Of a DNA stretch of 33,433 nucleotides, positions 3-32,505 are shown piece after piece. The number at the start of each line of letters is the position of its first letter. The first letter of the stretch is position 1. The DNA comes from Halostagnicola kamekurae (lineage in GTDB: Archaea > Halobacteriota > Halobacteria > Halobacteriales > Natrialbaceae), in contig NZ_FOZS01000011.1 of assembly GCF_900116205.1 (NCBI RefSeq), forward strand, positions 1-33,433. Reading direction: 5' to 3'. A program made the position numbers and the translations under genes. The notes beneath the pieces were generated by a model, which made no database searches, was not told where the DNA came from, and saw only the letters and a program-made list of their open reading frames with translations.

Positions 3-199
3 GCAGAGATTGAAGAGGAGATGAGTAAGTCGTTGATCTGGAGGTCACCTGAGGAAGCTCAACGAAATAGCAACCGAGCGAAAATCACGTTACGTCGTCC
101 TGTGTCCTCTCTGAGAAAACATCCTGGGATGAGTACCACCAGTGGATGATTGAACATGGCGAGCTGTTTTATGAGATATTGGCTCTGGTGAATCGCTAG
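3..199 (+). pseudogene. Degraded C-terminal gene fragment (unknown)
   Basis: An open frame runs in from the window's left edge (begins AEIEEEMSKSLIW) to about position 150. An overlapping frame then carries a protein-like tail (DEYHQWMIEHGELFYEI) that stops at 197-199. The two join sensibly if one base was lost or gained around 105-125, so this is probably the 3' end of a frameshifted gene whose start lies outside the window. I do not recognise the family. Nothing further is visible between 200 and 365. Confidence 0.3.
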
Positions 200-365
200 A
201 CTCCGGCGACTTTCAACTCTATATCAGGTGCTCGATGCACTACTCTTGGACAATTCTGGCTTCAGTTTCCCCCGAATCTCTGCTGGCGAAACGATTGGAC
301 TCATTCACAGTGCCACTATGTAGGTCCAACCCAACGCCCTATGGCGATTCACCAGAGCCAAATCT

Positions 366-5536: not shown

Positions 5537-6946
5537 TTAGAAAGGCCCATCATATTCTCCAGGTGAATTCTGAAAAATACTGTTGGTGAAGTTCTCACCT
5601 AGATCTGTGGAATTCTGTAAAGGAAGACCAAACGCCTGAAATATGGATACAACTGAATACAGGACTGAGGAAAATCGGTCTTCCTTAGATAATTCGATTT
5701 CGTACTGGAAAGGATTCATTCTCGGGGCTTCAACCACGTCGTCATAGCAAACCGGAGCACCGTAATCCTGAACCAATTCTTGATACCAGTCTGACTCAAA
5801 AAACAGCATTGTTCTATAGCCATTAATCAATCTGGCTTTGACATAGATGTTATTTGATTCTTCTGGCCAACCATAAGTTGAAAGTAAATTCATATAGATA
5901 TTCAAATGGTTATAGAGAGCAAGTAGAGTATTTTCCCCGTCAATGAACTGGATATTTTCATGGGATGAATCTAGGTACCTATCAATTACTTCCCATGTGA
6001 CTGTCTGATCGGATGGTTCCGGAAACGGAATTGTAGGAAGAGGCATGAAGAATTTCGCAGAACCATCAGCGAAAAACTTGATCGTAAGCGGAGTATGCGC
6101 CCTATCCTTATACCCATCTTCGTCATAAGTAGTCCACTGTTGAGCTACAACACCTTCGCTAGTTGCTCGATACGTATCCGCATCTACACCCATCTTAATA
6201 CTTTCATCTTCTTCCACGCCATCACGATCCTCCGAAAGTAGATACATGTTTGAAGACTGAACTGCATCCCTAAAACCGTCTAAATCTAACCGGACATCAC
6301 TGCAGACAGGTTCGTCAAGCGTTGTTGGGATACCGTATACCTCCAGCATAGGTATCCCCAGAATATCATTTTCTGGATCACCTGCATGCGCGTTTGTAAG
6401 CCCTACCTCGGTCTGACAGAATTCTTCAACTCTTTCCTGCCATTGCTCTCTCCGGTTATGAAGATCATCTAAAACACCTGGATCGGTTAACGGCCGATAG
6501 GGATCGCTTCCTTCACCAGTTCTCCGATACACACACCCGTTGTTATTGATATGCGGTGTGATCTGGCTTTCCGGAACATCTACTAGTATGACATATCCCT
6601 CACCTCCATCTTCAGAAAAACCATCAAATGTATGAGTTGTGAATCGTGGAGGCGGGCTAACGTATTCTTTGACTGCATTCCGGACTGTTTCCTTATATTT
6701 TGACGAATCACCATTACTCAATGTGAACCGGTCTTCCGGTTTGTTCGTGTCATCGTTTTCTTCAACTCCAAGGAAGAGAAGGCCGCCATACGTATTTGCA
6801 AATGAGCTAACTGATTTAGCGATATCTTCTTTTCCAATCAGACTTCGCTTGTATTCGTAGTAGTATCCCTCTGGAACATCTAACTCGTATATATCGTCGG
6901 AGTCTATCTCTGATAATGGTTTCTCGAAGGGATTGTAATTTATCAT
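5537..6946 (-). CDS. Schlafen AlbA_2-domain protein, 469 aa
   Basis: Residues 1-165 form a Schlafen AlbA_2 (divergent AAA/ATP-binding-like) domain. EYKRSLIGKEDIAKSVSSFANT followed by GGLLFLGVEEND is its hallmark, and a later VYRRTGEGSDPYRPL segment closes the domain. Residues 190-469 form a long C-terminal domain rich in aromatic and acidic residues that I do not recognise. AlbA_2 proteins bind nucleic acid or act as regulators, and many sit in prokaryotic defence islands. A TATA-like TTTTTATCAAG near 6976 is about 30 bp before the ATG, suggesting a leaderless single-gene transcript. It ends 21 bp from the PadR remnant, converging with it. It is A+T-rich compared with the replication genes. 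Confidence 0.75.
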   Translation of the reverse strand: MINYNPFEKPLSEIDSDDIYELDVPEGYYYEYKRSLIGKEDIAKSVSSFANTYGGLLFLGVEENDDTNKPEDRFTLSNGDSSKYKETVRNAVKEYVSPPPRFTTHTFDGFSEDGGEGYVILVDVPESQITPHINNNGCVYRRTGEGSDPYRPLTDPGVLDDLHNRREQWQERVEEFCQTEVGLTNAHAGDPENDILGIPMLEVYGIPTTLDEPVCSDVRLDLDGFRDAVQSSNMYLLSEDRDGVEEDESIKMGVDADTYRATSEGVVAQQWTTYDEDGYKDRAHTPLTIKFFADGSAKFFMPLPTIPFPEPSDQTVTWEVIDRYLDSSHENIQFIDGENTLLALYNHLNIYMNLLSTYGWPEESNNIYVKARLINGYRTMLFFESDWYQELVQDYGAPVCYDDVVEAPRMNPFQYEIELSKEDRFSSVLYSVVSIFQAFGLPLQNSTDLGENFTNSIFQNSPGEYDGPF

Positions 6947-7057
6947 CTATATTCTCTATCAAGGTGTTGTCTTGATAAAAATCCTACCTTCAAGAACTAG
7001 AGGTTCATCTTTACCGGTTTCCCCAGAGATACTGCCCTACAAGCAGTGATAAAATTC

Positions 7058-7980
7058 CTCTGTTGTATAGCGGTCTAGTCTGCCGATGTCACTAGCTTAG
7101 AAGGGTGAAGCTGAGGAATTCGATCTTGATATAGAAATCGATATCCTCGACTTCATTGAGCAATGTCGTGACCTAGCTAAACAAGGTTGGGGAAGCACGC
7201 GGGCGAACCTGCCGCTGGCGGACTCGCCCGCTGGGTTCACGTCGTTCTGCACTGTTTCCGACTCGAAGAAGGCCACAGCTACCGTGAAACACCGAATAGG
7301 CTGAAGTATCTGACTGAGGTCATGACGCACTTGACATAGATCGGGACGAACTCCCTGATTACAGCACAATCTACAAGTCATTTGACTGGCTGAAAATGTG
7401 GGTGTGGTGGGCGTTGCTGCGCGTTTCAGCGCACCAACGCCCGCAATCTGGGTACGCCGCTCTCGACAGCACGTTCTTTGATCGCCGTCGTGCTTCGTCG
7501 TACTTCCGCCAGCGATCAGGAAGCACTGTACAGACACTGAAAGTGACGACAATAACTGATGTCGAGTCGCTCGCTGTTCTTGACCTCTATATCACAGCAC
7601 GGTGGAAGCATGATACAAAGACGGGACTGCAGGTCGTCCGCATTTGGGCGGACGACCTGCAGTCCGAGGTTGCCGACAACGGGTTCCAAGACTGGCACAC
7701 TGAGTGCGAAATTGCCGAACTTGACGTTGAGTACCTTGTTCACTACCGCTGCTCATCGCCAAAAGTAGTTCTGAACAACGCGCTCAACCGGACAAACGGC
7801 TACTCTCAGCGCTGGATGGCCGAAACTTCCTATTTGACAACGAAGCGCTCGCACGGCATCGCCGAGCGAGCGCTTGGCTGGTATCGACAGTTCCGTGAAA
7901 TCGTCCTGATGTTCGCTCTCATCAGCATAGAGTCGTTGTGTGAGCCGTTGTAACCATGACTCAGCATCTATTCAACAGAG
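7058..7980 (+). mobile_element. Decayed IS5-type haloarchaeal insertion sequence
   Basis: The ends are inverted: CTCTGTTG-TATAG at 7058-7070 and, on the other strand, CTCTGTTG-AATAG from 7980. The resulting 923 bp is a normal length for a haloarchaeal IS5-family element. Inside lies a broken transposase. No convincing target duplication flanks it, which fits an old insertion. It sits in the small nuclease gene, whose frame reads into both ends. Confidence 0.75.
7110..7953 (+). pseudogene. IS5-family transposase, multiply frameshifted
   Basis: Three frames carry successive parts of one transposase. From about 7110: EEFDLDIEIDILDFIEQCRD. From about 7240: CFRLEEGHSYRETPNRLKYL. From about 7325 to the TAA at 7953: DELPDYSTIYKSFDWLKMW, then AALDSTFFDR, TLKVTTITDVES, and NGYSQRWMAETSYLTTKRS before the C-terminus. 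ALDSTFFD carries the first catalytic Asp and MAETS the catalytic Glu typical of the DDE fold. At least two frameshifts and a lost start codon make it inactive. The long uninterrupted 3' frame (7396-7953) should not be read as a functional gene. Confidence 0.8.
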
Positions 7981-8336
7981 CAGTCTCTTCATCTTGGTAA
8001 TCTTCGACGTATGCAGAGAGTTGATCGACATGATCCTCTGTCGCTTTGACTACCTTGAGTTTGATTAGAATAACATCATTGTTGGCGAGATAGATAAGAT
8101 CAGTGCATCCAGATGGGAGAGACTGTTGCCGTGCTACAGAAACTAACTCTCCAGGCTCCTCATCAATAATTGAAGCTAATAGACGGTGATTGCGCAAGAA
8201 TATCTACAATTGAGCTTTCCGAAGCAGTCGATTTTTCTGACATAGAACAGCCTCTCTAGCACACTCACATAATCGTTCACAAGACCTATAGATAGAATAC
8301 TCCGAGAATACAGTTGCGACTAACGTATTGATCTCC

Positions 8337-9494
8337 TCAGATAGATTCTTGGACAAATTCGCCGGAGATACGGTTTTCCTGCTCAACTGCGGCAGTATCA
8401 AGAAGACGGCTGCAAACGGATAGCACCTGTCGAATGTTCCCTTGAGAACGTTGGAGAATCAGGTCGAGAGCATCTTCTGTGAAAGGATAAATATCGGAGT
8501 GCTGGTCACCTCCTGTGCGTTCTCGATCTAGGTATCGTTCTACAAGGGCGTACAGATGTTCGTCAGTCAATGGGCGCAACGCAACCTCTTGTCCGATTCG
8601 CTCACTAAACGCGTGATATTCGCTCATTACGTCTTGCCAGACCTCTGGTGCGCAACCGAACAACATACAGAGCCCCTCACTATTCTGGTCCATCAGATGC
8701 CGGATACTGTTCAGGGTTGCCTGCTCGTCCTTCGATGAAAGACGAGCAATACTCTCAAACTCGTCAACGAAGACAAACACTGCAGTATAGCCCAACTCCA
8801 GCAGTAAATTCTTCATCGCTGTAAACGCCCGAACACCCATTGTATCGTCGTCGAGAGCGGTGTGGATCTCCATTTCTTTTCGCTGTTCATATCGAATCCC
8901 CTCCCCAGTCAACCATTGCCACGCATACAGGTTCGTGTCTTCATACACCATATGAACGATAGCCCTCGCGAAATCAGCAAACTTCGTCACATCGCTTAGT
9001 CGCTTGACTGCAGTTGGGACGAGTTCTGAAAGCAGTACATCACCATCATCAATCAGTGACCGCATTCCGTTCGCTCCAATGGGATTGGCATCCGTGACAT
9101 CACGCGCTACCGTTGCGAGGAACTCGTATGCGACTTCCTGGACTCGAGAAAACCCGAGATCATACATGAACTCGTGATAGATGTCGAGGAACCCTTCGCC
9201 TGGTTGCGCGACGTAGCCGACGACAATGTCTCCCTGATCCCGCAATAGCGAACGTGTATATTTGAGTGTATGCGACTTCCCGTTACCGTACTTTCCGGTG
9301 ACGACCAGGTGTTTCGATTTACCTGTCGATAACGTCGCAGATACCGTCGAACTGATTGCAGCGGTCGCGTGATCCTGACCACAGTAAATCTCCGGGTTCT
9401 CCGAAGGAACCGGACTGTACGGGAAAGGATTGCTGTCGAGCTTGAATTGGCTGTAATTCTGTTCCTGATCGCTGATGTCAAATGCTTCGCTCAT
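8337..9494 (-). CDS. P-loop ATPase of the DpdA-like operon, 385 aa
   Basis: An AAA/ORC-like ATPase. The Walker A GKYGNGKS is at residues 67-74 in TGKYGNGKSHTLKY, and the Walker B VFVFVDEFES is at about 239-248. A sensor-like 'LCMLFGCAPEVWQ' and an arginine-rich 'SQGNIRQVLSVCSRL' helix (C-terminal lid) follow. An N-terminal 'FKLDSNPFPYSPVP' precedes the P-loop, as in DUF2791/BREX-type and Cdc6-like ATPases. It is not an origin-binding Orc1/Cdc6: no clear C-terminal winged helix is seen. Its ATG overlaps the stop of the previous gene by 4 bp (ATGA). Bacterial Dpd clusters also encode ATPases, so a role as motor or switch of a DNA-modification/restriction complex is a reasonable inference. Confidence 0.75.
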   Translation of the reverse strand: MSEAFDISDQEQNYSQFKLDSNPFPYSPVPSENPEIYCGQDHATAAISSTVSATLSTGKSKHLVVTGKYGNGKSHTLKYTRSLLRDQGDIVVGYVAQPGEGFLDIYHEFMYDLGFSRVQEVAYEFLATVARDVTDANPIGANGMRSLIDDGDVLLSELVPTAVKRLSDVTKFADFARAIVHMVYEDTNLYAWQWLTGEGIRYEQRKEMEIHTALDDDTMGVRAFTAMKNLLLELGYTAVFVFVDEFESIARLSSKDEQATLNSIRHLMDQNSEGLCMLFGCAPEVWQDVMSEYHAFSERIGQEVALRPLTDEHLYALVERYLDRERTGGDQHSDIYPFTEDALDLILQRSQGNIRQVLSVCSRLLDTAAVEQENRISGEFVQESI

Positions 9495-10390
9495 TGGTTT
9501 GAATTGGGGGTAAACTCAAGGTCGCGGTCGTATACCGCGAGGTAGTAGTACTGTTTATCGAACTGTTCAAGTCCAGCCATAACCTGCTGTGTTGACTGGG
9601 ATGTCGAGACTAGCGAGTCACCGTCAGCAAGTGCAATCTCTTTGATTCCCAAGACTGACTCTTTCGCGGCCGTATCTAATGGTGCACCCGACAATTCGAG
9701 TTTTCCAATGTTCTCTTGGCACAGTGTTGTAAGTGCACTATCGAAGGAGCCACGGGAACACTGGAGTCGCTCACATATCCTCTCTCGTAACCTCGGGATC
9801 GAAAGGTATCGCTGCCGGAGATCGACACCCGCGGTTTCCTCGAGGTCATCATACTCCTCGAGGAAGACAAACTGGAAGTTTGCCGGTACGTCCCCGCTAT
9901 CGACCACATAGTACTCGCCAGTGAACGCATTTCGCTGGATCCCACCGAGGCGCTCTCCCCAATCGCCGACAATCTCTATCCCGGTCTGGTTGAACGAATG
10001 CGGGGAGTATTCGAGTTCTTTCTCCAAGTAGTCGAGTATTTCGTCCTGACTTGCAGGGCTGAACTCGTCGAGTACATCGAGGAACGTGCCGTAATGGGGA
10101 CTTCGAACGGCTAAGATCTCGTTTGCTTGTGTCCACTCTTCGGCCTTGACTGCGTCCAGAAATCGTTCGCCGACCGGTGTTGTTTGATATTCCAGTTCGT
10201 CGTCTGTATCTCGTTCGGAGAGCAGACCGATACGGGTCGCTTCTAGAACCGTCTCTCGGGCCCGACGATGACTAACATTCAATGTCTCTTCGATGGTTTC
10301 GGTCGTCTTGCTGGTACTCTCACAAACGTGTGTGAGCTCCGTGAGTCGGCCTAACGTAATTGGCCGGATGGTCGCTCGTTCTGACGTCAC
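9491..10390 (-). CDS. Unknown winged-helix protein of the DpdA-like operon, 299 aa
   Basis: The N-terminal 75 residues look like a winged helix: TIEETLNVSHRRARETVLEATRIGLL, then a wing ending YQTTPVGERFL. The middle contains a second helical unit ('TFLDVLDEFSPASQDEILDYLEKELEYS') and a probable third winged helix near 200-250 ('RERICERLQCSRGSFDSALTTL'). The start is GTG at 10390, overlapping the transferase stop (GTGA), and the end overlaps the ATPase start (ATGA). I do not recognise the family. Tandem winged helices suggest DNA recognition or a bridge between the transferase and the ATPase, in a position comparable to accessory Dpd proteins. That is inference from context only. Confidence 0.7.
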   Translation of the reverse strand: MTSERATIRPITLGRLTELTHVCESTSKTTETIEETLNVSHRRARETVLEATRIGLLSERDTDDELEYQTTPVGERFLDAVKAEEWTQANEILAVRSPHYGTFLDVLDEFSPASQDEILDYLEKELEYSPHSFNQTGIEIVGDWGERLGGIQRNAFTGEYYVVDSGDVPANFQFVFLEEYDDLEETAGVDLRQRYLSIPRLRERICERLQCSRGSFDSALTTLCQENIGKLELSGAPLDTAAKESVLGIKEIALADGDSLVSTSQSTQQVMAGLEQFDKQYYYLAVYDRDLEFTPNSNQ

Positions 10391-11421
10391 GACAGCCTCC
10401 TGACTTGCTGTTTGGCGGTCTGATACGCTCGTTGCGTTACTTCGTTCCCCTGAAACCGGAGATCGAGATAGTCTTCGATGTCTCTCCCGGATTCGTCGAC
10501 ATACCGAAAACGACGTAATTCAGTGGCCATCGCCCATAGATTGTGGCGTGTAAGGGCGTCGCGGTCTTCCCGAATATCGTCGAGGGCTCTGGACCCGCAG
10601 ACTGGGCACGAACATGGGAGGTACGACAGGTCGTCTATTCGAGTGAGTTCCTCACCTCCAAATCCTGGTATCAGGTAGTTTCGGTTGCCTGCACTCCGAA
10701 TGAACGCAGATGAGTCGAAACTATCGACTCCGAGGTAGAGTAAGAGTGGCTGATAGACGAGTCCACCGAGCCCATACACGTGGAGATGCTTATTGGTCGC
10801 TGTTCTCGCAGCGAGGATTAATTTCGTCGTCTTTGTGTAATCTGTTCGAATGGGGACAAGGCTACCAAGTGCGTAACCATCGAAGTCACCGTGTTGCTCT
10901 AAGTATCGAACTGTATTGCGAACCGTCTCTGGATCGTATCCGTGGACGCTCGCAAACAGAGGTTCGGAACTGTCGTGGTGGTCACTCGCCTTGAGGGCCA
11001 GTTCGACACTTCGGTCGATCCGCCGCTGGTTCTCTGCTGCCCGATTGTCCCGAGAAATCGGGAGATCGACCGTCCCGAAGATATCAGCCTCGAGCAGTCG
11101 CTGTGTCTCGAGCGTCTCTTCAGGCGTCGTATCCAGATCTTCTGCGGCGAAATCGTATCCACCGCTATCGGCGAAAACGATCGTCTTATTTGGGGTGTCC
11201 ATCTCTTCGCGAAGTGATACACCATTCGTTAGTCGATCCCACATTGGATCTCGATTCCTGATCGCTCGAGCGTTGATCATCGCCGTCGGAAGATCGGGAA
11301 TTGCATCCACGTATTCCGGCGTATTGTCGCTCGAGCGCTTTCCCAAGTTCCGCACGGGAAAGAGAACAGGGGTGTGGAGGTCTCCTCGAGGGAGTTCGAG
11401 TGTCCGCTGTCGATACAACAT
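10387..11421 (-). CDS. dpdA: DpdA-like TGT-family 7-deazaguanine transferase, 344 aa
   Basis: A TGT-fold transglycosylase without the C-terminal PUA region of archaeal tRNA-guanine transglycosylase (344 versus about 500-600 residues). Visible motifs: DSGGYD at 85-90 (general acid/base Asp85), YALGSLVP at 183-190, GLGG at 217-220, GVDSFDSSAF with the candidate nucleophile Asp236, and the zinc site Cys270-x-Cys272-xx-Cys275...His293. Stand-alone TGT paralogues of this kind (DpdA, formerly TgtA5) insert preQ0-type bases into DNA. A haloarchaeal host would make preQ0 for archaeosine, so substrate would be available. It is first in a three-gene overlapping operon, with a TATA-like TATCTATTTAAC near 11450, about 29 bp before the ATG. 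The symbol is by fold and context; a tRNA role cannot be excluded. Confidence 0.7.
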   Translation of the reverse strand: MLYRQRTLELPRGDLHTPVLFPVRNLGKRSSDNTPEYVDAIPDLPTAMINARAIRNRDPMWDRLTNGVSLREEMDTPNKTIVFADSGGYDFAAEDLDTTPEETLETQRLLEADIFGTVDLPISRDNRAAENQRRIDRSVELALKASDHHDSSEPLFASVHGYDPETVRNTVRYLEQHGDFDGYALGSLVPIRTDYTKTTKLILAARTATNKHLHVYGLGGLVYQPLLLYLGVDSFDSSAFIRSAGNRNYLIPGFGGEELTRIDDLSYLPCSCPVCGSRALDDIREDRDALTRHNLWAMATELRRFRYVDESGRDIEDYLDLRFQGNEVTQRAYQTAKQQVRRLS

Positions 11422-11444
11422 TCACACGAGTCTGTTGTTGTTCC

Positions 11445-11456
11445 TGTTAAATAGAT
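11445..11456 (-). promoter_or_regulatory. TATA-like box for the DpdA-like operon
   Basis: On the minus strand the sequence reads TATCTATTTAAC, about 29 bp before the ATG at 11421. This spacing predicts a leaderless or nearly leaderless transcript. No member of the palindromic operator family is present here, so this operon is probably controlled separately. Confidence 0.5.
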
Positions 11457-11676
11457 AATAACTCAATACAGAATCGAAGTAGTCGAATACACGTTCAGGA
11501 ATAGTCTCTGTATACCGTCGTTACTGCAATCCAATTGGATAACGTCCTATACCGTTGTTCCGTAGATTCTGGAGTGTTTTATCTCATAGCGCAGCAAAGA
11601 CTTCCTATCTATCCTCCTATTACTTGTTACTGAATACAGTGGATGAATCCTTCAACGCAATAAGGGTGATTTCCTG

Positions 11677-12027
11677 CTAAGACTGTGTGCGCTTAAGGAG
11701 ATTGATTGCGAATTCAGCTGCCGCTATTTGGCTATTTGCTTCTCGGATTTCAGCCTCACTAGCGTCCCCTGAGTGACGTACCATCCGTCCATTATGAATA
11801 TGACCATTGAGAACGCAGATAACATCCTCTATATCCGATAATCCAAACACTTTTTGAAATTTTCTAGCTTCCTCGCCCGAAGGCTTGTAGATGAATTCTG
11901 CTAACTGTCCTCGTACTACTTGTGGCGGAACTGGGAGTGTTTCAGCGGCTTCCGTCACAAATTCTTCTAACGTGTCTGCTTTTGATTCCTTCCCCAACTC
12001 CCAAATTTCACGTTTAGTATTAGCCAT
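11677..12027 (-). CDS. Unknown protein, 116 aa
   Basis: A charged, mostly helical protein: MANTKREIWELGKESKAD, then EFVTEAAETLPVPPQVVRGQL, FGLSDIEDVICVLNGHIHNG and a C-terminal helix rich in Ala (EIREANSQIAAAEFAINLL). No known domain is recognised. I chose the ATG at 12027; the frame extends ten codons upstream to a TTG but those residues are a Lys/Arg-rich artefact-like stretch (LRKKKRVD). The gene is A+T-rich. It is separated from the DpdA-like operon by about 255 bp in which I see only its promoter region. Confidence 0.6.
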   Translation of the reverse strand: MANTKREIWELGKESKADTLEEFVTEAAETLPVPPQVVRGQLAEFIYKPSGEEARKFQKVFGLSDIEDVICVLNGHIHNGRMVRHSGDASEAEIREANSQIAAAEFAINLLKRTQS

Positions 12028-12232: not shown

Positions 12233-12574
12233 CTATTTTATCATAATATCTCCCATCGAAATAAGAAGCGAGTATCTGTCGAGGCTCTCATTTATCATCA
12301 CTGTCTTCCGATCGTCATCGTATTCAATTAGTCCTGCTTCATCGAGTTTTGGCAGGTGCTGTTGAATAAGACTGTTATAGGCTGATTTGTAGTCATCAGT
12401 TGGGATCGCTCGAGGAGGAGTGTCCGTTTCGATACTCCTGATTGCACTTGCAATTTGGCGGACATCGATCATGTTTTCTTGATCAAAAAGTGAGAGGTAT
12501 TTCACCGTAAGTAAGCGCCGCCGATTGCCGAGCAATTTGTACACGTTAGATGTCGTAGCGGGCCGATTACTCAT
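12233..12574 (-). CDS. DUF7344-like winged-helix regulator, 113 aa
   Basis: It begins MSNRPATTSNVYKLLGNRRRRL-like (actual RRRLLTVKYL) and continues with QIASAIRSIE, then YNSLIQQHLPKLDEAGLIEYD and a wing 'RKTVMINESL'. 'LLGNRRRLLTVKYL ... HLPKLDEAGLIEYD' is the signature of the haloarchaeal DUF7344 winged-helix regulators. I chose ATG 12574 because it overlaps the stop of a 42-codon ORF (ATGAGTAA); the frame also has a GTG two codons upstream. A palindromic promoter element lies in front of the two-gene unit (12705-12739). It is probably a transcriptional regulator of local plasmid genes. Confidence 0.7.
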   Translation of the reverse strand: MSNRPATTSNVYKLLGNRRRLLTVKYLSLFDQENMIDVRQIASAIRSIETDTPPRAIPTDDYKSAYNSLIQQHLPKLDEAGLIEYDDDRKTVMINESLDRYSLLISMGDIMIK

Positions 12575-12695
12575 ACCCACTCACCACCTGAGCGATAACA
12601 GTATCTATTATATTGCTTCGATTAGGCGTGGAAGCAAAACTCATCTCGCCACTTTGTGCCACAATAGCGCGGATTTTCGGACTACTCTCGTTCAT
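12567..12695 (-). CDS. 42-codon coupled leader ORF of the DUF7344 unit
   Basis: ATG at 12695 begins a 42-residue frame (starts MNESSPKIRAIVAQSGEMS) that ends in TAA at 12569-12567, overlapping the regulator's ATG. It starts about 10 bp after the palindromic promoter element. Its sequence has no recognised family. The same architecture recurs at 26941 and 27606, which makes a real function, coding or regulatory, more likely than chance. Confidence 0.4.
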   Translation of the reverse strand: MNESSPKIRAIVAQSGEMSFASTPNRSNIIDTVIAQVVSGYE

Positions 12696-13544: not shown

Positions 13545-15602
13545 TCACTTCGCGTCGAGGTGGGAGATTCCGATGACGGCTGGAAGTGAGTCCGGCTGTA
13601 ACGTGTTTTTTTCCTCGTGGTGTTCGTACCGTGCGATCTGCCCCATCAAACGGCGCAAGATGGCGTTCCGAAATTCAGTATGCGTCGCTACCGTTACGTT
13701 CGACTTGAGTGCATCATCGCTTCCGGGGACACCCACGAGATGATCGAATCGGTCGAGACCAGGGTCCAAATGGCTGAATTCGATCTGTGAGTCTATCTCA
13801 GTAATAGTGTACGCTGCGATCAGTTCCGTCTCCTCGAGCAATGCTTCCGGTGTCTCCGCGTCGTCGTTTATCGCAAGCCCGAAGACGAATCTGCAGTTTG
13901 TCTCAACAGGTTCGGCCTCAACTGCTGCTGTTCGAGCCAGTTTGATGCTGTGATTGAACAGTCCGTACCAAGTTTCGCGATCGATACTCTTGAGAGCAGT
14001 TACGAGTGCTTTCGTACGAGTGATATTTGGCTCGAGAAGGCGTGCTGCCTGAGCAGGAATGACGATATCTCCCGAGAGAGCATCGATCGGGACCGTTGTC
14101 CCGGTGTTGTCGAGTTCCTCGAGTCGGGCCACGATCAGGGGCCCCTCATCTCCCTCAACTGTACGTGAGAAGTCTGCCGTATCGAGATCTGGCTCGACGA
14201 CGAATCTGGTATCTTCGAATGTGGGACTGACGAGGAACTCAGTCCCATCGAACGAGACATTCGACAGGAATTGACAATCAGTGAAATCTGCCTCACCGGC
14301 GAAAGATGCAGCGTCGAATCTAGTAGCACCACCAAATTCGGTCCCCCTGAATACTGCTTGTGCGTCGAATTGGACCGATCGAAAATCGGCATCACCAGCG
14401 AGCTCGGCACCAAACTGGAAATGGTCGATCGTGGCTTCTCGGGCATCGACATCACCTTGGATCGTCGATCCGTGAAAAAATAGCTGGGATGTGGAGCAAG
14501 CGTTTCGAACAACGACATCGCCACCAAACGTGGCATCCCGCAGGTGGGTCAGATCTTCGAATTGAGCGCTATCGAAGTCAATGATACCGTCGAAGTGACC
14601 GTACGTGAACCAGACCTCGTCTTTGAACGTACAGTCTGTGAACGAAAGCGAATTAGCGAAGGTAGCGAACGAGAACGAGGTGTAGCCTTCGAACGTACTT
14701 TGGTCGAACGACGCGATGACACCGTGATGGCGGAAGTCGTCGAAATCCACTTTCCCAGCGAAGGTTACCTGCGGAGCATTCAGTTCCCCGCTGACGACCG
14801 CGTGGCAGCAGCGAACGTCACTGTCGATTTCGATACCAGATAGTGTGAGATCCTGCTCAAGGGACGCACCAGTGAGTCGAAACTCCCCACCGACGGTACT
14901 GTCGGCAAACGACGTCTCGTCGGTTACAGATATCATCGCAAAGTCAGCAAGAAGACGCCATTCGGTGCGGTCACACGAGAGTTCGCCGTGGAATGCAGAT
15001 CTAGCGAATCTGGCATTGGCACTAAACGAAGCCTCATCAAACACGGCTGGTCCGTCTACCGTGAGATTTCTCGCATCGACAAATCCAGCGTCAAGCCCGT
15101 TAGCGACTATACCATCATCGAACTGTGCGTGAGAGACCAGCGTCTGTCGGCCGATCTTCGCACCCGCCAAGTCAACGATACCCTCAAAACGTGTACCACG
15201 AGCGTCGAGTGTCCCCGTAATAGCAGCATTTCCGAGAAGGAGTGGTACTTTGATCGTCGCATTCGAGAGATCGAGGTCGCCGTCGATCGTTGCCCCTCGA
15301 AGATCGATCGGTTCGCCGTCTGGGGTCTCGAGGACTGTCCCCGAGAGATCGATCGACCCGATACGTCCACCCGCAAAGGTCGCGACTTGGTCTGGTTTGG
15401 AAACTGCTTCGAGGAACGTCTCAGCTATCGTATTCGGCGGATACTCGCCTTCAGCAGTGTGAAACAGACAGCGATCGTAGTCACTGGACAGTGGCGGGTG
15501 CGGACAGTAATCGGGTTCTGCAACTGGAAGCGGTCCAACGGCTGCCGGCGCCGTTTCACTTAGTGAGCGGTACTGATACGAGCAGTGTGTCTCTTGAGTC
15601 AT
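13545..15602 (-). CDS. Pentapeptide-repeat protein, 685 aa
   Basis: Residues 75-480 form one long stack of pentapeptide-type repeats in which every fifth residue is Phe or Leu and the pattern A(D/N)F/LxxA/T recurs, for example LDARGTRFEGIVDLAGAKI, SFSFATFANSLSFTD, DFRSVQFDAQAVFRGTEF and ADFTDCQFLSNVSFDG. Such stacks make right-handed quadrilateral beta-helices that mimic DNA or act as scaffolds. The N-terminus has Cys7, Cys33/His35 and Cys45/His48, a probable zinc site also seen in other haloarchaeal pentapeptide proteins. The last 200 residues are not repeats and contain an unrecognised alpha/beta domain. It is the middle gene between the HhH-GPD-like and HAD-like genes. Its function is unknown. 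Confidence 0.8.
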   Translation of the reverse strand: MTQETHCSYQYRSLSETAPAAVGPLPVAEPDYCPHPPLSSDYDRCLFHTAEGEYPPNTIAETFLEAVSKPDQVATFAGGRIGSIDLSGTVLETPDGEPIDLRGATIDGDLDLSNATIKVPLLLGNAAITGTLDARGTRFEGIVDLAGAKIGRQTLVSHAQFDDGIVANGLDAGFVDARNLTVDGPAVFDEASFSANARFARSAFHGELSCDRTEWRLLADFAMISVTDETSFADSTVGGEFRLTGASLEQDLTLSGIEIDSDVRCCHAVVSGELNAPQVTFAGKVDFDDFRHHGVIASFDQSTFEGYTSFSFATFANSLSFTDCTFKDEVWFTYGHFDGIIDFDSAQFEDLTHLRDATFGGDVVVRNACSTSQLFFHGSTIQGDVDAREATIDHFQFGAELAGDADFRSVQFDAQAVFRGTEFGGATRFDAASFAGEADFTDCQFLSNVSFDGTEFLVSPTFEDTRFVVEPDLDTADFSRTVEGDEGPLIVARLEELDNTGTTVPIDALSGDIVIPAQAARLLEPNITRTKALVTALKSIDRETWYGLFNHSIKLARTAAVEAEPVETNCRFVFGLAINDDAETPEALLEETELIAAYTITEIDSQIEFSHLDPGLDRFDHLVGVPGSDDALKSNVTVATHTEFRNAILRRLMGQIARYEHHEEKNTLQPDSLPAVIGISHLDAK

Positions 15603-16592: not shown

Positions 16593-17342
16593 ATGGAACC
16601 GATGAATATCGTCGACCGGGTGCAAATTGCACCGCTCGGTTACGAGAAAGCTCGTGTAAAAGAACCGATCTACCAATTCAACGCTGACAAGGTAGTGCTG
16701 ATCCGTCAGGACAGTAGTACTGACTACGAGACGGATTACCAACGTGATCTCATTTCCGAGTTAGAGGATAACGACCGGATCGAACTTGACACCTTGGAGT
16801 GTGACTTTTTCGATCTCGAGAGTTCGCTACGTGTACTCACGAGTGCGATCCGTGAACATGAAGATCACGACGTCTATGTGAACGCCTCGACCGGAAGCAA
16901 AATCACTGCTATCGCAGCAGTGATTGCTTGCCAAAATCTGGGCGCCACGCCGTTCTACGTCCGTCCCGAGTACCGTAATGACGACGGACATCTTGAGCCG
17001 CCAGAAGAGCCGCTCGTGAGTGAGGTAGGTGAAATCACAGACATACCGGTTTTCAGTCTCCAGAGCCCTTCTATGAACCAGTTGCTGGTACTCTCATACC
17101 TCGCTGAAGAAGATGGAGCCACCAAGAAAGAACTGATAGAGTTTGGCAAGTCACAAGAGTTCGATTTTATCGTCAATTCGAAAACGACGTCCGAAGAGGG
17201 CCTGTATAAACTCCTCGAGACGCATATCATTGATCCATTGCAGTCTAAGTCATTTATCTCTGTGAAGAAAGACGGGCGGACGAAACGAGTGTATCTCGCT
17301 GATCATGGGAAAGAAGCACTTCAGATATTCCAACCCGAGTGA
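16593..17342 (+). CDS. HFX_2341/DUF6293-type CARF transcriptional regulator, 249 aa
   Basis: Residues 1-150 form a CARF (CRISPR-associated Rossmann fold) domain: VQIAPLGYEKARVKEPIY at the N-terminus, strand VVLIRQD, and the ligand loop DVYVNASTGSKITAIAA with Asn97, Thr100, Gly101 and Lys103. Residues 160-249 form a winged helix (LVLSYLAEEDGATKKELIEFG, wing DGRTKRVYLADHG). This is the layout of haloarchaeal HFX_2341-type regulators, related to Csa3. The ligand would be a cyclic oligonucleotide or similar nucleotide. No CRISPR or cas gene is in the window. The start may be ATG 16593 or the ATG three codons later. It is divergent from the HhH-GPD operon, a natural control target. Confidence 0.75.
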   Translation: MEPMNIVDRVQIAPLGYEKARVKEPIYQFNADKVVLIRQDSSTDYETDYQRDLISELEDNDRIELDTLECDFFDLESSLRVLTSAIREHEDHDVYVNASTGSKITAIAAVIACQNLGATPFYVRPEYRNDDGHLEPPEEPLVSEVGEITDIPVFSLQSPSMNQLLVLSYLAEEDGATKKELIEFGKSQEFDFIVNSKTTSEEGLYKLLETHIIDPLQSKSFISVKKDGRTKRVYLADHGKEALQIFQPE

Positions 17343-25755: not shown

Positions 25756-26253
25756 TCACTGAGAGCAGACGCATTCGTACCGCAGTGTGGCGGCATTCAG
25801 AATGTACCGGTGAACTGCTTCAGCAAGTGCCAACATTGCATCGGCTTGTTCGGCACTGGCGACCGTCTCGCGATAGTATACTTCGGCTCGGTTCTGCTTC
25901 CAGAGTTGGGTAAGTCGATCGGCGAACTCTTGGCTGAATAGATTCACTGTTGCACCCTGCTGGTACACCTCCGTGTGTTCGTAGCGTAGGTCCTCCCCAG
26001 ATGCATGTCCACGATGCAGCAGATAGAACTGAATACTGCGCTCGGCGGCCACAAACGACGCCTCGATCACTACCGTATAGTATCCATTCTGCTCGCGGAG
26101 CGTTCGTGCTGCTTCGAGGAGTCGACAGGCCTTTCGTAGCTGAACGAGAGCGGTGTTTGAGACATCCAGATCGGATTCGCCAGTTTGCCCACGAGTCTGC
26201 TGAAAGGCCACCTCTGCGTCGGTGAGTGCTTTGTCGACGTAGCTATCGTCCAT
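25756..26253 (-). CDS. HEPN-domain-like partner of the nucleotidyltransferase, 165 aa
   Basis: An all-helical protein: ALVQLRKACRLLEAARTLRE, then YYTVVIEASFVAAERSIQFYLLHR, then LFSQEFADRLTQLWKQNRAEVYYRE and a final long helix. This fits the HEPN fold, usually coupled with a minimal nucleotidyltransferase. The usual R-x(4-6)-H RNase motif is not clear by eye, so catalytic competence is uncertain. Its ATG overlaps the stop of the nucleotidyltransferase gene by 11 bp. In related MNT/HEPN modules one protein AMPylates or inhibits the other; here the roles are inferred from position. Confidence 0.65.
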   Translation of the reverse strand: MDDSYVDKALTDAEVAFQQTRGQTGESDLDVSNTALVQLRKACRLLEAARTLREQNGYYTVVIEASFVAAERSIQFYLLHRGHASGEDLRYEHTEVYQQGATVNLFSQEFADRLTQLWKQNRAEVYYRETVASAEQADAMLALAEAVHRYILNAATLRYECVCSQ

Positions 26254-26944
26254 TCGTCAGCACCTCCTCTTTGAGTTGGGTGAGAGCGTCGGATCGTTCG
26301 AGCGTTAGTCCAGTGGCAAAGATCTCGCGCAGTCGATCTCCGTATCGGCGCGCACTCTCGCCGGATTCGACGAGGACGTGGAACTTGTACCGATCACCAT
26401 CAAACGGTTGCTCATTCAACTCCGATGTGAGTTCGTCAGCAGTGTGTTGGGCTGTTGCCCGCCCATCATCGACGAGGACGAAGCAATCGATATCGCTACG
26501 TCGATCAGCATCCCCTCGAGCAACACTACCAAAGAGGACGATGCCGTGGATGTCGTCAACGTTGTCAGTCAGTCTCGAGACGAGTTCTCGAACTGGGACG
26601 TGGAACTCCGTTTGTGGGATCTGGATGATTGGATCGTCAGGCTTGCTGAGTCGAGCACGATTAATCTGCACGAGCTTCTTCCGCCCACTATGCTCAATCT
26701 CGACGAAGCCAACTGCCTCGAGGTCATCAACAGCCGCCGAAATGCTTCGATGCGGATGATCCGTCGCTCGGCTCAAATCCCGAATTCCGAACGCTGTATA
26801 GGGATTATCGACAAGCAATGTGAGAATCTCCCCAGTACAGGTGTGACTGAAGAGATCCGTAGAAGGAACAGGGACTGACAGCTCGAGTGATGCGCCCCTT
26901 TGGATACTTTTACTACCCATAGATAGATTTTGTTTCCAGTTCAT
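26243..26944 (-). CDS. Minimal nucleotidyltransferase with N-terminal winged helix, 233 aa
   Basis: Residues 35-100 are a winged helix (GEILTLLVDNPYTAFGIRDLS, HRSISAAVDDLEAVGFVEIE). Residues 115-233 are an MNT-type nucleotidyltransferase: GSVARGDADRRSDID with Gly139-Ser140 and Asp151-x-Asp153, the exact GSx10DxD signature. The partner HEPN-like gene follows with an 11-bp overlap, so this is a toxin-antitoxin-like pair. I chose ATG 26944 because it overlaps the stop of the 36-codon leader ORF (ATGA); ATG 26920 is an alternative. The unit is preceded by palindromic promoter copy D (27071). Confidence 0.8.
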   Translation of the reverse strand: MNWKQNLSMGSKSIQRGASLELSVPVPSTDLFSHTCTGEILTLLVDNPYTAFGIRDLSRATDHPHRSISAAVDDLEAVGFVEIEHSGRKKLVQINRARLSKPDDPIIQIPQTEFHVPVRELVSRLTDNVDDIHGIVLFGSVARGDADRRSDIDCFVLVDDGRATAQHTADELTSELNEQPFDGDRYKFHVLVESGESARRYGDRLREIFATGLTLERSDALTQLKEEVLTNGR

Positions 26945-27051
26945 AAATAGATGCTGGGAAGGAGGGCTTCCCCCGATGATGCTAATACGTCCGGTCCGGT
27001 TGGTGCTCGATCGACACGCCAGTGTTGCTGGTGCAGTTGCACAGATTGCAT
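26941..27051 (-). CDS. 36-codon coupled leader ORF of the nucleotidyltransferase unit
   Basis: ATG 27051 begins MQSVQLHQQHWRVDR; TGA 26943-26941 overlaps the nucleotidyltransferase ATG as ATGA. It starts about 20 bp downstream of the palindromic element D. It has no recognised family. Its place and stop overlap repeat those of the ORFs at 12567 and 27606. Confidence 0.4.
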   Translation of the reverse strand: MQSVQLHQQHWRVDRAPTGPDVLASSGEALLPSIYL

Positions 27052-27070
27052 ACGTTGATCCGGGGCTGTT

Positions 27071-27105
27071 CGAAAACCCCTCGCCCCTTCGGGGATGAAA
27101 AACAC
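27071..27105 (-). promoter_or_regulatory. Palindromic promoter/operator element, copy D (MNT/HEPN-like unit)
   Basis: Minus strand: GTGTTTTTCAT, then CCCCGAAGGGG, then CGAGGGG and TTTTCG. The 11-bp palindrome is perfect. The T-rich box to palindrome-edge distance is about 26 bp, so the predicted transcript begins at or just after the palindrome. Confidence 0.6.
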
Positions 27106-27337
27106 TACACGGCGGGTTCGACATCACTCTGAATCGCTCCCGAACAACCGTTTCGTCCGGTTCCACACAGACGGTGCCCTAGATTCGTCCTCGTCCGCTG
27201 AATTCACAGTGGGATTTTTCGTGAGCGGGATCTGTCTCTCGATTACGGTCTGCAAGTTGATCCGGTCCTATGTGTCTGCAGGCAACTGCGCAAGTTGGTC
27301 TTCCGCTCGAGACGAAAACACCCAGCCCCACTCGTCT

Positions 27338-27807: not shown

Positions 27808-29064
27808 TCATTCGTCCTCCCCGACGAACCGCCGTGCACGCGTCCAGATCGAGTCGTCTTGATCAGGACCCGTCTCATCCACCTCGGGATCCGAAGCCTG
27901 ATCACGATGCTCGAGTTCCTCCTGATAATCACTGAGTTGTTCTCGAAGCGCTTCGTTGGTTGCCTCGAGGTCAGCGATACGCTCGTCTTTCTCCTCGAGT
28001 GTTGTCTCAAGGTCGCCGACGCGGTCAGACAACAGCCGATTCTTTTCGACCAGATACGCATGATTCTGCGCTGGCTCGTCACGGTTCTCGGTGGTCGACG
28101 ACTCGCTTTCTTTGGAACTCGCTTCACTCGAGCCCTCTCGAGTGTCAGGATCGTAGAATTCGGAGGTATTTGCTATTGCTCGTTCGATGGTCTTTTCGCC
28201 GTACGTTGAGCCATCACCATAGTGGACGTCGTCCCACTTCTCCCGGAGAAGTCCTGATTGCCGGAAGAGTCGATCGACTCGAGCGTGGTCGCCACCGGTC
28301 CAGAACGCCAGCAAACAGCACAGCGCCATATCGGCTTCCGACTGGCTCTCGTACCCAGCTGTGTTCCCCTTCCAAAGACGCTCGAACTTTGATCCGTTCG
28401 ACGCATTTCGCGCCTTCTCGAGCAACTCCTCGTCCTCGAGGTCAACGTCGATATCGACTGTCTTGCCCGTCGATATCTGCTCGCTAGTCGTGCCACGATT
28501 CTCGGATTCAGATTTCGCACCAGTATCGGTGTCCTGGACGTACTCTCCGTGAATCGCCTCGAGTGCATCCTGCCGATGAGCAACATGGTTAGGCGTCTCC
28601 TCGAGGTGATCGCCGGTCACGGTGAAAAACCGAGCCGTGTCGTACAGTTCGATGCTTCCACGTCGATTCCGGCCAGATGGGAGCTCACCCTCGATGAGCA
28701 CATGAAACCCAGTTCCCGAGGGTGAGATCTCCGTATAGGAATCGAGTCGCTCGATAATGTCTTGAGCCACGTCGTCAACGTCCCCAGTTTCCGGATCCCG
28801 GCAGTCATCCAGGTCGACACCGACGATGGGGTCGTCGTCGGTAAACACAAACCCAACACCATCTGCCTCTCTCGAGTCAGCATACTCGAGCGCCGTCTTG
28901 ACCGACGTCCATGTGGTCGGATCCGTCGAGGATGCAAACTCACCACTCCCCGGTGTCACCGGGATCTTCGTTGGCTTCCCATCTCGAGATTCTCCTCGCC
29001 AGCACACCCACTGGTCACGTTTTCGTAACTGCTCGGGAAGCACTGAAACTGTACTTTCAGACAT
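27808..29064 (-). CDS. PrimPol-type plasmid primase, 418 aa
   Basis: Residues 1-170 are a bifunctional primase/polymerase-like domain of the phage NrS-1/plasmid type: WVCWRGESRDGKPTKIP, GVGFVFTDDDPIVGVDLDDC (Asp84, Asp86), SPSGTGFHVLIEG and a later TARFFTVTG strand. Residues 215-300 (LLEKARNASNGSKFERLW to KTIERAIAN) fit the helical HBD-like domain that follows it. The C-terminal 100 residues are a coiled coil (LVEKNRLLSDRVGDLETTL). There is no helicase part, so it needs a partner. I chose ATG 29064, which has GGTGG nearby; ATG 29130 is in frame and also possible. Iteron-like repeats lie just upstream. Confidence 0.75.
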   Translation of the reverse strand: MSESTVSVLPEQLRKRDQWVCWRGESRDGKPTKIPVTPGSGEFASSTDPTTWTSVKTALEYADSREADGVGFVFTDDDPIVGVDLDDCRDPETGDVDDVAQDIIERLDSYTEISPSGTGFHVLIEGELPSGRNRRGSIELYDTARFFTVTGDHLEETPNHVAHRQDALEAIHGEYVQDTDTGAKSESENRGTTSEQISTGKTVDIDVDLEDEELLEKARNASNGSKFERLWKGNTAGYESQSEADMALCCLLAFWTGGDHARVDRLFRQSGLLREKWDDVHYGDGSTYGEKTIERAIANTSEFYDPDTREGSSEASSKESESSTTENRDEPAQNHAYLVEKNRLLSDRVGDLETTLEEKDERIADLEATNEALREQLSDYQEELEHRDQASDPEVDETGPDQDDSIWTRARRFVGEDE

Positions 29065-29418
29065 CGCCGATCCACCTCGTGTTGTGCGTCCATCTGGTCG
29101 CATACCACTCATCAGTATTCTGATAAACATACCGTAAGCCGGTAGGCTGTCCGCACCCCTCTCCAACGGGTGCAACCCATTGTATACTAGTTGGTTTTTG
29201 GGGTGATTTTACCCCGGACAGTACTCCAGTCTGGTGGTTTTTACCCCGGACATCCGTTGAGCGGTTTACCCCGGACAAACAATTACCCTGGACAAGAACT
29301 GCAAAGGTGGAGAATAAACGGCATAGAGCTTGGTGTACGTCCGAATTGCTAATAAACCCACAAGTGGAACGGAACCACGGAGCATCGTACCCAACATACG
29401 TAACAGATGTGATGTTTA
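29065..29418. promoter_or_regulatory. Intergenic region upstream of the primase
   Basis: This 354-bp gap holds the iteron-like repeats and a possible diverged operator (29147-29176) before ATG 29130. A 121-codon frame on the minus strand (29057-29422) overlaps the primase start with its stop, as the leader ORFs do elsewhere, but it runs through the repeats and its only ATG is far upstream. I do not annotate it. Confidence 0.45.
29208..29294 (+). repeat. Iteron-like direct repeats (4 copies), candidate origin or operator
   Basis: TTTACCCCGGACA occurs at 29208-29220, 29240-29252 and 29265-29277, and a degenerate copy, ATTACCCTGGACA, at 29282-29294. Spacing is 32, 25 and 17 bp, so the copies are not phased. 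All have the same orientation. They lie between the ATPase gene end and the primase start, a usual site for a plasmid replication origin or autoregulatory operator. A hairpin, GCACCC/GGGTGC, follows at about 29151-29172. Confidence 0.65.
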
Positions 29419-32400: not shown

Positions 32401-32505
32401 ACCTGTGGAGGAGATTTCTTCACCGGACGCATCATCTACTGGTTCGTGCTCACTATCGCTACTCGAGGGCTCCTCACCGGATCCGAAGAATCGATCAAAT
32501 ACCAT
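29419..32505 (-). CDS. VirD4/TraD-like P-loop ATPase with extra C-terminal domains, 1028 aa
   Basis: An acidic N-terminal tail (1-60) precedes an AAA/HerA-type motor: Walker A GTTGYGKTT at 137-145 and Walker B YFVLCDEFDD at 381-390, followed by a sensor region with 'SVTLASQYPSQF'. This fits conjugative coupling proteins (TraD/TrwB) and VirB4-like archaeal homologues. No N-terminal membrane helices are visible. Residues 640-720 look like a PD-(D/E)XK-type domain (PDAVATHPDHDVVFNIEAE), and residues 945-1020 match the winged helix at the end of D5-type primase-helicases (VPKNDLYQAYSNWVDLHDL). The ATG 32505 has GGAGGG 8 bp upstream and overlaps the previous gene by 11 bp. Probable role: moving plasmid DNA during transfer. 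Confidence 0.8.
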   Translation of the reverse strand: MVFDRFFGSGEEPSSSDSEHEPVDDASGEEISSTGGDDQTETKNTGAESSSDQQPNSDREQYQIVDQNTTRVGGKPILTDTADEGTVAGPYVREMFEAGMYNAPAPLWVGYTEDPQTGFREAPLRFDSLFRHNWIAGTTGYGKTTQLLNMMVQWAYSGYGFTYFDPKGQDSRELLRMLPKHRLEDVVWIEPGSTTHENTVGMNFLEVPECETTEELENEIENRVENLKAVFDTSDYWGINMEAITESMARAMMKSEQPFSIIDMYFILLNADRREDFALDVEDPYIREFCLEIAEMEEETVRPLLKRIKSWVENSVIRRIIAHRESTINFRDIIDNDRIVIVRTPVENTDIKKMVTLGVMRNLWSAIQRRSYELDTEPDPYFVLCDEFDDIASDNLDIESMLARARSMRLSVTLASQYPSQFDEDTLKAMQNNCDNLLTFSVNDSDDAELLMKRFRDYTAEDLITTDQFKVWTRIPLSGGRYSEPVLIQTFPPYPPLRGTDAVDRIIEQSLERYGTDPLTDAEILNDLLYSDSNEAANPTKILEETMAEAVRAVQIRDGVREKNDWVDVATVDEELAVRLEKADPKIDFDREELPDIREGSRFLEVTLQNDDIVIRLTDDGETSVEPETGTVRSAGGSTHDAVLLETETALTERGFSVEILEQDGSEQPDAVATHPDHDVVFNIEAETTTPDRPVKVLQNLKRAHEADRIPIFVVRPGDSKTEWATRVENILSPPLQERADGTEQFYNSDEAVTFGGGATAHGGVTAVRPKTFESNRTVWTRENGEIVLSDGETVFARVPDEGTLSKDSVPAYYSHDRETGQYTVYEAGDTQVYDSRDDFEQEWTLIKQPFIPNLELSNGDISRDNYLVLILSEDGSPIVFHRGETHSLPKNPSDTELWPPKSTTGSVRTDDSTSTRRGETRPDVVESEISEEDESIEIDPNGDSVEAFAAMYVEETAGAQVPKNDLYQAYSNWVDLHDLDGTNMVWFGRKLATAVDYDSDRVRDGDDKVNVYIGIDLTSEGTNLLDQ

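What the first reader, a model, noticed from the sequence alone, without database searches (positions are those of the whole stretch)
7011..11421. Compact DpdA-like DNA-modification/defence cassette in a haloarchaeal plasmid
Seen: three overlapping genes (GTGA and ATGA junctions) encoding a PUA-less TGT-fold transferase with zinc site and Asp236 nucleophile, a tandem winged-helix protein and a P-loop ATPase, followed by a small PD-(D/E)XK-like nuclease remnant. Known: bacterial Dpd clusters use DpdA to insert 7-deazaguanine bases into DNA, together with ATPases, helicases and nucleases, and haloarchaea make preQ0 for archaeosine. Inference: this is a minimal archaeal relative, with one transferase, one adaptor, one ATPase and one nuclease, that modifies plasmid DNA and once restricted unmodified DNA. 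I know of no description of this four-gene form.
Basis: partly seen in the sequence, partly recalled or inferred. Interest (0 to 1): 0.85.

Follow-up and report, generated by a model that had tools for sequence, protein, structure and literature searches.

The report
Second transglycosylase module of archaeal Dpd
A three-gene block encoding a base-swapping enzyme, a DNA-binding adaptor and an ATP-driven motor is not a minimal stand-alone system but an apparently undescribed, tightly co-conserved part of a larger salt-loving-archaea system predicted to write 7-deazaguanine marks into DNA, and that system sits in the host of a virus whose DNA is known to carry such marks.

Summary
In detail: window 8337-11421 (-) encodes three 4-bp-overlapping genes, a PUA-less TGT-fold enzyme with intact catalytic and zinc residues (TGT2), a tandem winged-helix protein and a BrxC/D-like AAA+ ATPase, followed by a dead nuclease fragment. 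TGT2 is not DpdA: it scores 33 bits against a 200-bit DpdA cut-off and forms its own archaeal clade, apart from DpdA and apart from tRNA-acting ArcTGT plus bacterial TGT. Nor is the system minimal. The true DpdA, fused to a DpdC-like DUF6884 domain, lies on another contig of the same genome with DpdH-, DpdJ- and PLD-type genes. In 391 Halobacteria genomes TGT2 (56) and DpdA (55) co-occur in 54; the one genome with TGT2 and no DpdA has a broken triad. The triad is usually beside DpdA, recurs in Methanoregula, and is under strong purifying selection. DpdB, the usual bacterial partner, was found in only 2 of 391. Haloarcula vallismortis, host of virus HVTV-1 (about 30% of guanines modified, no viral DpdA), carries the island. 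Best reading: a two-transglycosylase variant of Dpd in which the triad stands in for DpdB. No paper in the library searched describes it.

The parts
10387..11421 (-). TGT2: PUA-less transglycosylase of the TGT fold, 344 aa; D85/D119/D236 catalytic, Zn site C270-C272-C275-H293, His160 at the position where ArcTGT, bacterial TGT and host DpdA have Gln
9491..10390 (-). tandem winged-helix protein, 299 aa, no Pfam family; probable DNA-binding adaptor
8337..9494 (-). AAA+ ATPase of the BrxC/BrxD superfamily, 385 aa; Walker A G70-K73, Walker B D244-E245
10387..10390 (-). GTGA overlap, TGT2 stop / wHTH start; the 4-bp overlap is kept in 47 of 55 loci
9491..9494 (-). ATGA overlap, wHTH stop / ATPase start
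7982..8243 (-). pseudogene of a 355-aa NucS-C-like PD-(D/E)XK nuclease, frameshifted and truncated; accessory and sporadic, not a core part
12233..12580 (-). DUF7344 gene upstream of the triad; same family found in 21 of 56 loci, possible regulator, membership uncertain

Best explanation
The triad is one module of a haloarchaeal Dpd-type island whose other parts (DpdA fused to a DpdC-like DUF6884 domain, DpdH-like ATPase, DpdJ-like helicases, PLD protein) lie on contig C12 of the same genome. Shown: the gene content, the co-occurrence, intact catalytic residues, purifying selection. Inferred: TGT2 is an active DNA-guanine transglycosylase that works with DpdA on host DNA. The tandem winged-helix protein binds DNA and the BrxC/D-like ATPase loads or moves the enzymes on it, taking the place that DpdB holds in bacterial Dpd. 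preQ0 comes from the FolE-QueD-QueE-QueC route (island-borne in many relatives; QueC is chromosomal here) and the DUF6884 domain may convert the inserted base. The DpdH/DpdJ/PLD side would restrict unmodified DNA. Likelihood of steps: triad belongs to the Dpd island 0.95; TGT2 acts on DNA 0.7; triad replaces DpdB functionally 0.5; TGT2 and DpdA form one complex 0.35.
For: TGT2 in 56 and DpdA in 55 of 391 Halobacteria genomes, 54 with both at the strict threshold; G130 has a divergent DpdA too and G034, which lacks DpdA, has a truncated wHTH and no ATPase. DpdA is within the fetched stretch around the triad in 49 of 55 loci, que genes in 29. The triad at about 40% identity occurs in Methanoregula and an uncultured archaeon, again with DpdA on the same contig and, in Methanoregula, QueC/QueD beside it. 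The long protein passes the NCBIfam DpdA cut-off (276 and 273 bits, cut-off 200). DpdB in only 2 of 391; no DndB/DpdB on four haloarchaeal plasmids with the island. TGT2 lacks the tRNA-binding PUA region (344 aa). The own genome keeps a separate ArcTGT and ArcS for tRNA. H. vallismortis contig AOLQ01000002, which Hutinet et al. 2019 (PMC6884629) name as source of the host DpdA that may modify HVTV-1 DNA, carries DpdA+TGT2+wHTH+ATPase+folE/queC/D/E.
Against: No modified base has been measured in cellular DNA of any carrier of the triad. DNA as TGT2 substrate is inferred from context. In bacteria DpdA with DpdB is enough, so a second transglycosylase is not strictly needed. Genome counts are not phylogenetically independent. 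In this genome triad and DpdA are on different contigs, so joint expression is not shown.
Confidence: 0.62

Rival explanations
1. One reading: a minimal, self-contained archaeal modification-restriction cassette in which this transferase is the DpdA and the small gene was its nuclease.
For: Conserved three-gene operon with catalytic transferase and ATPase; a nuclease-like remnant follows it.
Against: TGT2 is not DpdA by score or tree; a real DpdA is in the same genome and in every genome with an intact triad examined; the nuclease family is at only 3 of 56 loci.
Confidence: 0.03
2. Reader/effector rival: the triad sits on the restriction side. TGT2 binds (or removes) 7-deazaguanine in DNA to tell self from non-self, and the BrxD-like ATPase with the winged-helix protein signals to the nucleases.
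For: BrxC/D-type ATPases and tandem wHTH proteins are sensing/assembly parts of BREX-like systems (PMC12839542); His160 replaces the base-pocket Gln; restriction-type genes often flank the triad.
Against: The triad is normally encoded together with DpdA and que genes, the synthesis side, while restriction-type genes are often absent from the same stretch; all transglycosylase residues are kept invariant.
Confidence: 0.17
3. TGT2 is a duplicated tRNA transglycosylase with a changed tRNA target that merely travels with the island.
For: Best NCBIfam match is TgtA (123 bits) and the tree puts it on the tRNA-TGT side of the split from DpdA.
Against: No PUA domain; far below the 350-bit TgtA cut-off; outside the ArcTGT+bTGT clade; canonical ArcTGT kept in the same genome; near-perfect co-occurrence with DpdA and operon with a DNA-binding-type protein and AAA+ ATPase.
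Confidence: 0.1
4. The window copy is a decaying leftover with no function.
For: Adjacent nuclease pseudogene and transposase debris; DpdA is not on the same contig.
Against: All three frames intact; dN/dS 0.036-0.059 against the nearest relative at dS about 0.94; complete-looking DpdA island elsewhere in the genome.
Confidence: 0.08

Closest known systems
Bacterial Dpd islands (dpdA-K; DpdA transglycosylase with DpdB and DpdC; Thiaville 2016, as summarised in PMC11888242 and PMC12839542)
   Same: DpdA above the NCBIfam cut-off, DpdC-like DUF6884 domain, DpdH-like ATPase, DpdJ-like helicase, PLD protein, folE/queD/queE/queC and YhhQ neighbours
   Different: DpdB not found in 389 of 391 Halobacteria; instead a three-gene module with a second transglycosylase, a tandem winged-helix protein and a BrxC/D-like ATPase; DUF6884 is C-terminal to DpdA or the next gene, whereas cyanobacterial DpdA has it N-terminal
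Archaeosine tRNA-guanine transglycosylase (ArcTGT/TgtA, 1IQ8)
   Same: Closest solved fold, same catalytic and zinc residues
   Different: No PUA region, His160 for the base-pocket Gln, own clade, 123 of the 350 bits required
Phage DpdA (Enterobacteria phage 9g)
   Same: Short transglycosylase linked to DNA modification; His in the aligned base-pocket position (H141)
   Different: No usable sequence similarity; phage protein lacks most of the zinc ligands that TGT2 keeps
BREX-Related Capture systems with TGT (PMC12839542)
   Same: Combine a TGT with BREX-like ATPases and wHTH-type DNA-binding parts
   Different: Those are defined by HerA/FtsK, PglZ, DUF6079 and DUF4007, none of which was noticed in the neighbourhoods here; no DpdA island is reported there
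Cyanobacterial and Paenibacillus Dpd islands with a second TGT (found here: L171, L172, L174)
   Same: DpdA plus a second, distinct TGT within a few genes; in Paenibacillus TGT2-246 aa protein-P-loop NTPase-DpdJ, and no DndB/DpdB on the record
   Different: Second TGT is of other lineages; its zinc ligands are lost in Nostoc and Picosynechococcus; partners are helicases or another NTPase, not the wHTH-BrxD pair

Membership tests
DpdA (NF041059) | score above curated cut-off of 200 bits | tested here: not met
   TGT2 33.3 bits; the long protein on C12 273 bits, met
DpdA (NF041059) | falls in the DpdA clade of a TGT tree | tested here: not met
   split 99/97 between DpdA and the side with TGT2
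ArcTGT / TgtA (TIGR00432) | score above curated cut-off of 350 bits | tested here: not met
   123 bits
ArcTGT / TgtA (TIGR00432) | C-terminal PUA region for tRNA binding | tested here: not met
   344 aa, model covers only the catalytic half of 1IQ8 (TM 0.85 by query, 0.52 by target)
TGT superfamily (PF01702) | TGT fold, Asp base and Asp nucleophile, CxCx2C-H zinc site | tested here: met
   91 bits; residues invariant
Dpd system | DpdA in the same genome | tested here: met
   C12 8797-11976
Dpd system | DpdB partner (DGQHR/DndB type) | tested here: not met
   0 in own genome, 2 of 391 Halobacteria
Dpd system | DpdC-like DUF6884 protein | tested here: met
   fused to DpdA, DUF6884 30.2 bits (cut-off 30) and PADLOC DpdC 30 bits
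Dpd system | restriction genes DpdH, DpdJ, DpdK | tested here: inconclusive
   DpdH-like 74 bits (cut-off 450), DpdJ-like 101 bits (cut-off 800), PLD protein: homologous but below equivalog cut-offs
Dpd system | 7-deazaguanine in DNA | not testable with these tools
   needs LC-MS; only indirect support from HVTV-1 grown in H. vallismortis (PMC6884629)
BREX BrxD (NF033438) | score above curated cut-off of 350 bits | tested here: not met
   52 bits; superfamily PF10923 is met at 64 bits

The most novel reading that the evidence does not exclude
Archaeal (and some bacterial) Dpd systems are two-transglycosylase machines: DpdA and a separate, previously unrecognised TGT lineage act together on DNA, either as a heteromer comparable to eukaryotic QTRT1/QTRT2 or with different base or site specificities (TGT2 has His160 where DpdA has Gln), with a tandem winged-helix/BrxC-D ATPase pair replacing DpdB.
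Probability: 0.4. Interest if true: 0.8.

Novelty: new variant of a known kind. Interest (0 to 1): 0.62.

Why it matters
A large Dpd survey required DpdA plus DpdB and covered bacteria only (PMC11888242), so a DpdB-less, two-transglycosylase form present in about one in seven sampled haloarchaeal genomes would have been missed. It offers a concrete genetic candidate for the open question of how HVTV-1, which has no DpdA, gets about 30% of its guanines modified in Haloarcula vallismortis (PMC6884629). It also adds a TGT lineage with an altered base pocket and without tRNA-binding domains.

Tried and rejected
Searched for relatives in viruses: only weak hits (22-25% identity) in IMG/VR and in Sulfolobus viruses STSV1/2, so not a viral gene in disguise. 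Considered whether about 600-aa cyanobacterial/Poribacteria TGTs (L141-L147) are TGT2-wHTH fusions: the wHTH profile did not hit them, so no Rosetta-stone fusion. PDB profile searches with the wHTH and ATPase alignments gave nothing significant. Tested the idea that second TGTs and DpdB exclude each other in cyanobacteria: mostly but not fully, since G577 has DndB, DpdA and TGT2 within about 19 kb. A hypothetical protein next to DpdA in DndB-type cyanobacterial islands looks TGT-like by eye, but profile comparison did not establish it. Whether C11 and C12 are one replicon could not be settled (one shared 181-bp repeat near contig ends). Key Dpd papers (Thiaville 2016, Gedara 2023, the 2024 MMBR review) are not in the library, so novelty is judged only against held papers.
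Full report
WHAT IS THERE. The window is the whole of contig C11 (33,433 b) of a 4.1-Mb haloarchaeal genome; the Natronococcus sp. CG52 genome counts as 'same family', so the host is probably in Natrialbaceae. On the minus strand, three genes overlap by 4 bases: 10387-11421 (344 aa), 9491-10390 (299 aa, GTG start) and 8337-9494 (385 aa). The first is a TGT-fold enzyme (PF01702, 91 bits), here called TGT2. Its AlphaFold model (pLDDT 85.8) matches P. horikoshii archaeosine TGT best (1IQ8, E 1.6e-21, TM 0.85 over the query, 0.52 over the target): it is the catalytic half without the C-terminal part that includes the PUA domain. D85, D119, D236 and the CxCx2C-His zinc site are invariant in 28 relatives down to about 40% identity. 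The second protein has no Pfam family; its model (pLDDT 88.3) is a chain of winged-helix units, with fold matches to RPC62, MarR/ArsR regulators and the FokI structure. The third is an AAA+ ATPase of the BrxC/BrxD superfamily (PF10923, 64 bits) with invariant Walker motifs.

THE 'NUCLEASE'. The fragment downstream is a pseudogene. The nearest relative (L041, TGT2 92% identical) has an intact 355-aa NucS_C/PD-(D/E)XK-like protein straight after the ATPase. The window keeps only its first about 88 codons (8243-7982), with a frameshift and with ELK changed to KLK at the ExK motif; transposase debris follows. The family occurs at 3 of 56 loci including the window. It is an accessory, not a core gene.

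THE MODULE IS CONSERVED AND FUNCTIONAL. In 391 Halobacteria genomes, 56 carry a full-length TGT2 at 54-100% identity, sharply separated from the about 30% matches to ArcTGT. In 50 of 55 fetched loci with TGT2 the winged-helix and ATPase genes follow directly, 47 with the same 4-bp overlap at the first junction. Window against L041: dN/dS 0.047, 0.059 and 0.036 for the three genes at dS about 0.94. The triad exists also in Methanoregula (UBA471) and another uncultured archaeon at about 40% identity.

IT IS PART OF A DPD ISLAND. Neighbourhoods of 55 loci and seven annotated plasmids show a second, long TGT beside the triad, with folE/queD/queE/queC, a YhhQ transporter, Csa3-like regulators, a DpdH-like ATPase, DpdJ-like helicases and a PLD protein in varying combinations. 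The long protein passes the NCBIfam DpdA cut-off (276 bits against 200) and carries, fused or as the next gene, a DUF6884/DpdC-like domain. DpdA occurs in 55 of the 391 genomes, together with TGT2 in 54 (Fisher p about 1e-62, ignoring phylogeny). Of the exceptions, G130 has a divergent DpdA next to the triad, G034 has a broken triad and no DpdA, and G165 has DpdA without TGT2. Both non-halophile triads have DpdA on the same contig.

IN THIS GENOME. DpdA-DUF6884 (1059 aa, 273 bits; 8797-11976 minus) lies on contig C12 (32.5 kb) with a Csa3-like gene, two conserved unknowns, a DpdH-like protein (74 bits, E 1e-20), two large helicases (one matching DpdJ in NCBIfam at 101 bits, the other in PADLOC at 120 bits, though the latter scores slightly higher against Druantia helicases) and a PLD protein. 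So the host has a complete-looking island split over two contigs, which share a 181-bp identical repeat near their ends. The host keeps chromosomal ArcTGT, ArcS and QueC. DpdB is absent and was found in only 2 of 391 Halobacteria, both of one genus and both on the contig of this island.

WHAT TGT2 IS. In an ML tree of 37 TGT-fold proteins, TGT2 forms one archaeal clade (95/84) on the non-DpdA side of a 99/97 split, but outside the ArcTGT+bacterial TGT clade (100/99). Scores agree: 123 bits to TgtA (cut-off 350), 33 bits to DpdA (cut-off 200). Where ArcTGT, bacterial TGT and host DpdA have Gln in the VQG motif, which contacts the base in tRNA TGT structures (my knowledge), nearly all TGT2 have His160. 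Phage 9g DpdA also has His in the aligned position, though that alignment is uncertain. Some bacterial islands also pair DpdA with a second TGT: Nostoc NIES-3756, Picosynechococcus PCC 73109 and Paenibacillus sp. 37, none with DndB/DpdB on the record. Their second TGTs are of other lineages, and two have lost the zinc ligands.

MECHANISM. Shown: gene content, co-occurrence, intact active site, purifying selection. Inferred: TGT2 exchanges guanine in DNA together with DpdA; the winged-helix protein and ATPase deliver the enzymes to DNA, the place DpdB holds in bacteria; DUF6884 may convert the base; DpdH/DpdJ/PLD restrict unmodified DNA. The nearest experimental support is indirect. Hutinet et al. 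2019 (PMC6884629) measured dPreQ1 at about 30% of guanines in HVTV-1, which has no DpdA, and suggested the DpdA of its host H. vallismortis on contig AOLQ01000002. That contig (L111) carries DpdA, TGT2, wHTH, ATPase, the full preQ0 gene set, helicase and PLD genes. Which of the two TGTs is the accession they cite could not be checked.

NOVELTY. Searches of the held literature found no description of the triad or of a two-transglycosylase archaeal Dpd island. Haloarchaeal host DpdA itself was noted in 2019, and a large Dpd survey required dpdAB and reported bacteria only (PMC11888242). The 2026 BREX-Related Capture systems combine TGT with BREX parts but differ in their other components (PMC12839542). 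Important Dpd papers are not in the library, so novelty is provisional. Verdict: a new variant of a known kind, of solid interest because it is directly testable.

Noticed in passing
L111 (NZ_AOLQ01000002.1, Haloarcula vallismortis): The contig cited in 2019 as carrying the host DpdA that may modify HVTV-1 DNA carries both DpdA and the TGT2 triad with all preQ0 genes.
   Followed up: partly
L171 9933-18450; L172 1074-9403; L174 9158-17012: Bacterial Dpd islands (Nostoc, Picosynechococcus, Paenibacillus plasmids) also hold a second TGT between or beside helicase/NTPase genes, without DndB/DpdB on the record.
   Followed up: partly
L173 2922-3806; L178 10313-11152: A roughly 290-aa 'hypothetical' between DpdA and DndB in cyanobacterial islands has DSG / LGG / ADS motifs like a degenerate TGT (PHROG 887, E 0.012), unproven.
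   Followed up: partly
L098 8797-11976: The own DpdA has a tandemly repeated segment of roughly 90 residues (query 416-506 matched twice) before the zinc site.
   Followed up: no
window 179-359 and C12 32164-32344: 181 bp identical between the start of this contig and the end of the DpdA contig, perhaps one replicon broken at a repeat.
   Followed up: partly
window 25756-27166: HEPN (25756-26253) and nucleotidyltransferase (26243-27166) overlapping pair, probably a MNT/HEPN toxin-antitoxin.
   Followed up: no
window 16593-17342: CARF-domain protein (HFX_2341_N / Card1-like CARF with DUF6293 wHTH).
   Followed up: no
window 5537-6946: Schlafen AlbA_2 domain protein downstream of the triad.
   Followed up: no
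window 29419-32673 and 27808-29175: TraG/VirD4-like coupling ATPase and a protein with an NrS-1 polymerase HBD domain, suggesting a mobile plasmid or integrative element.
   Followed up: no
window 13545-15602: 685-aa pentapeptide-repeat protein upstream of the triad.
   Followed up: no
L140 1011-4994 and L169: The uncultured archaeon has extra diverged copies of the ATPase and winged-helix genes beside its triad and a third TGT elsewhere with His in the base pocket.
   Followed up: no
G161:C4:122047-123114 and G273:C1:843029-844189: Only one haloarchaeal genus in the sample has a DpdB-like gene, and it lies on the contig of this island; these genomes have both DpdB-like and TGT2.
   Followed up: partly
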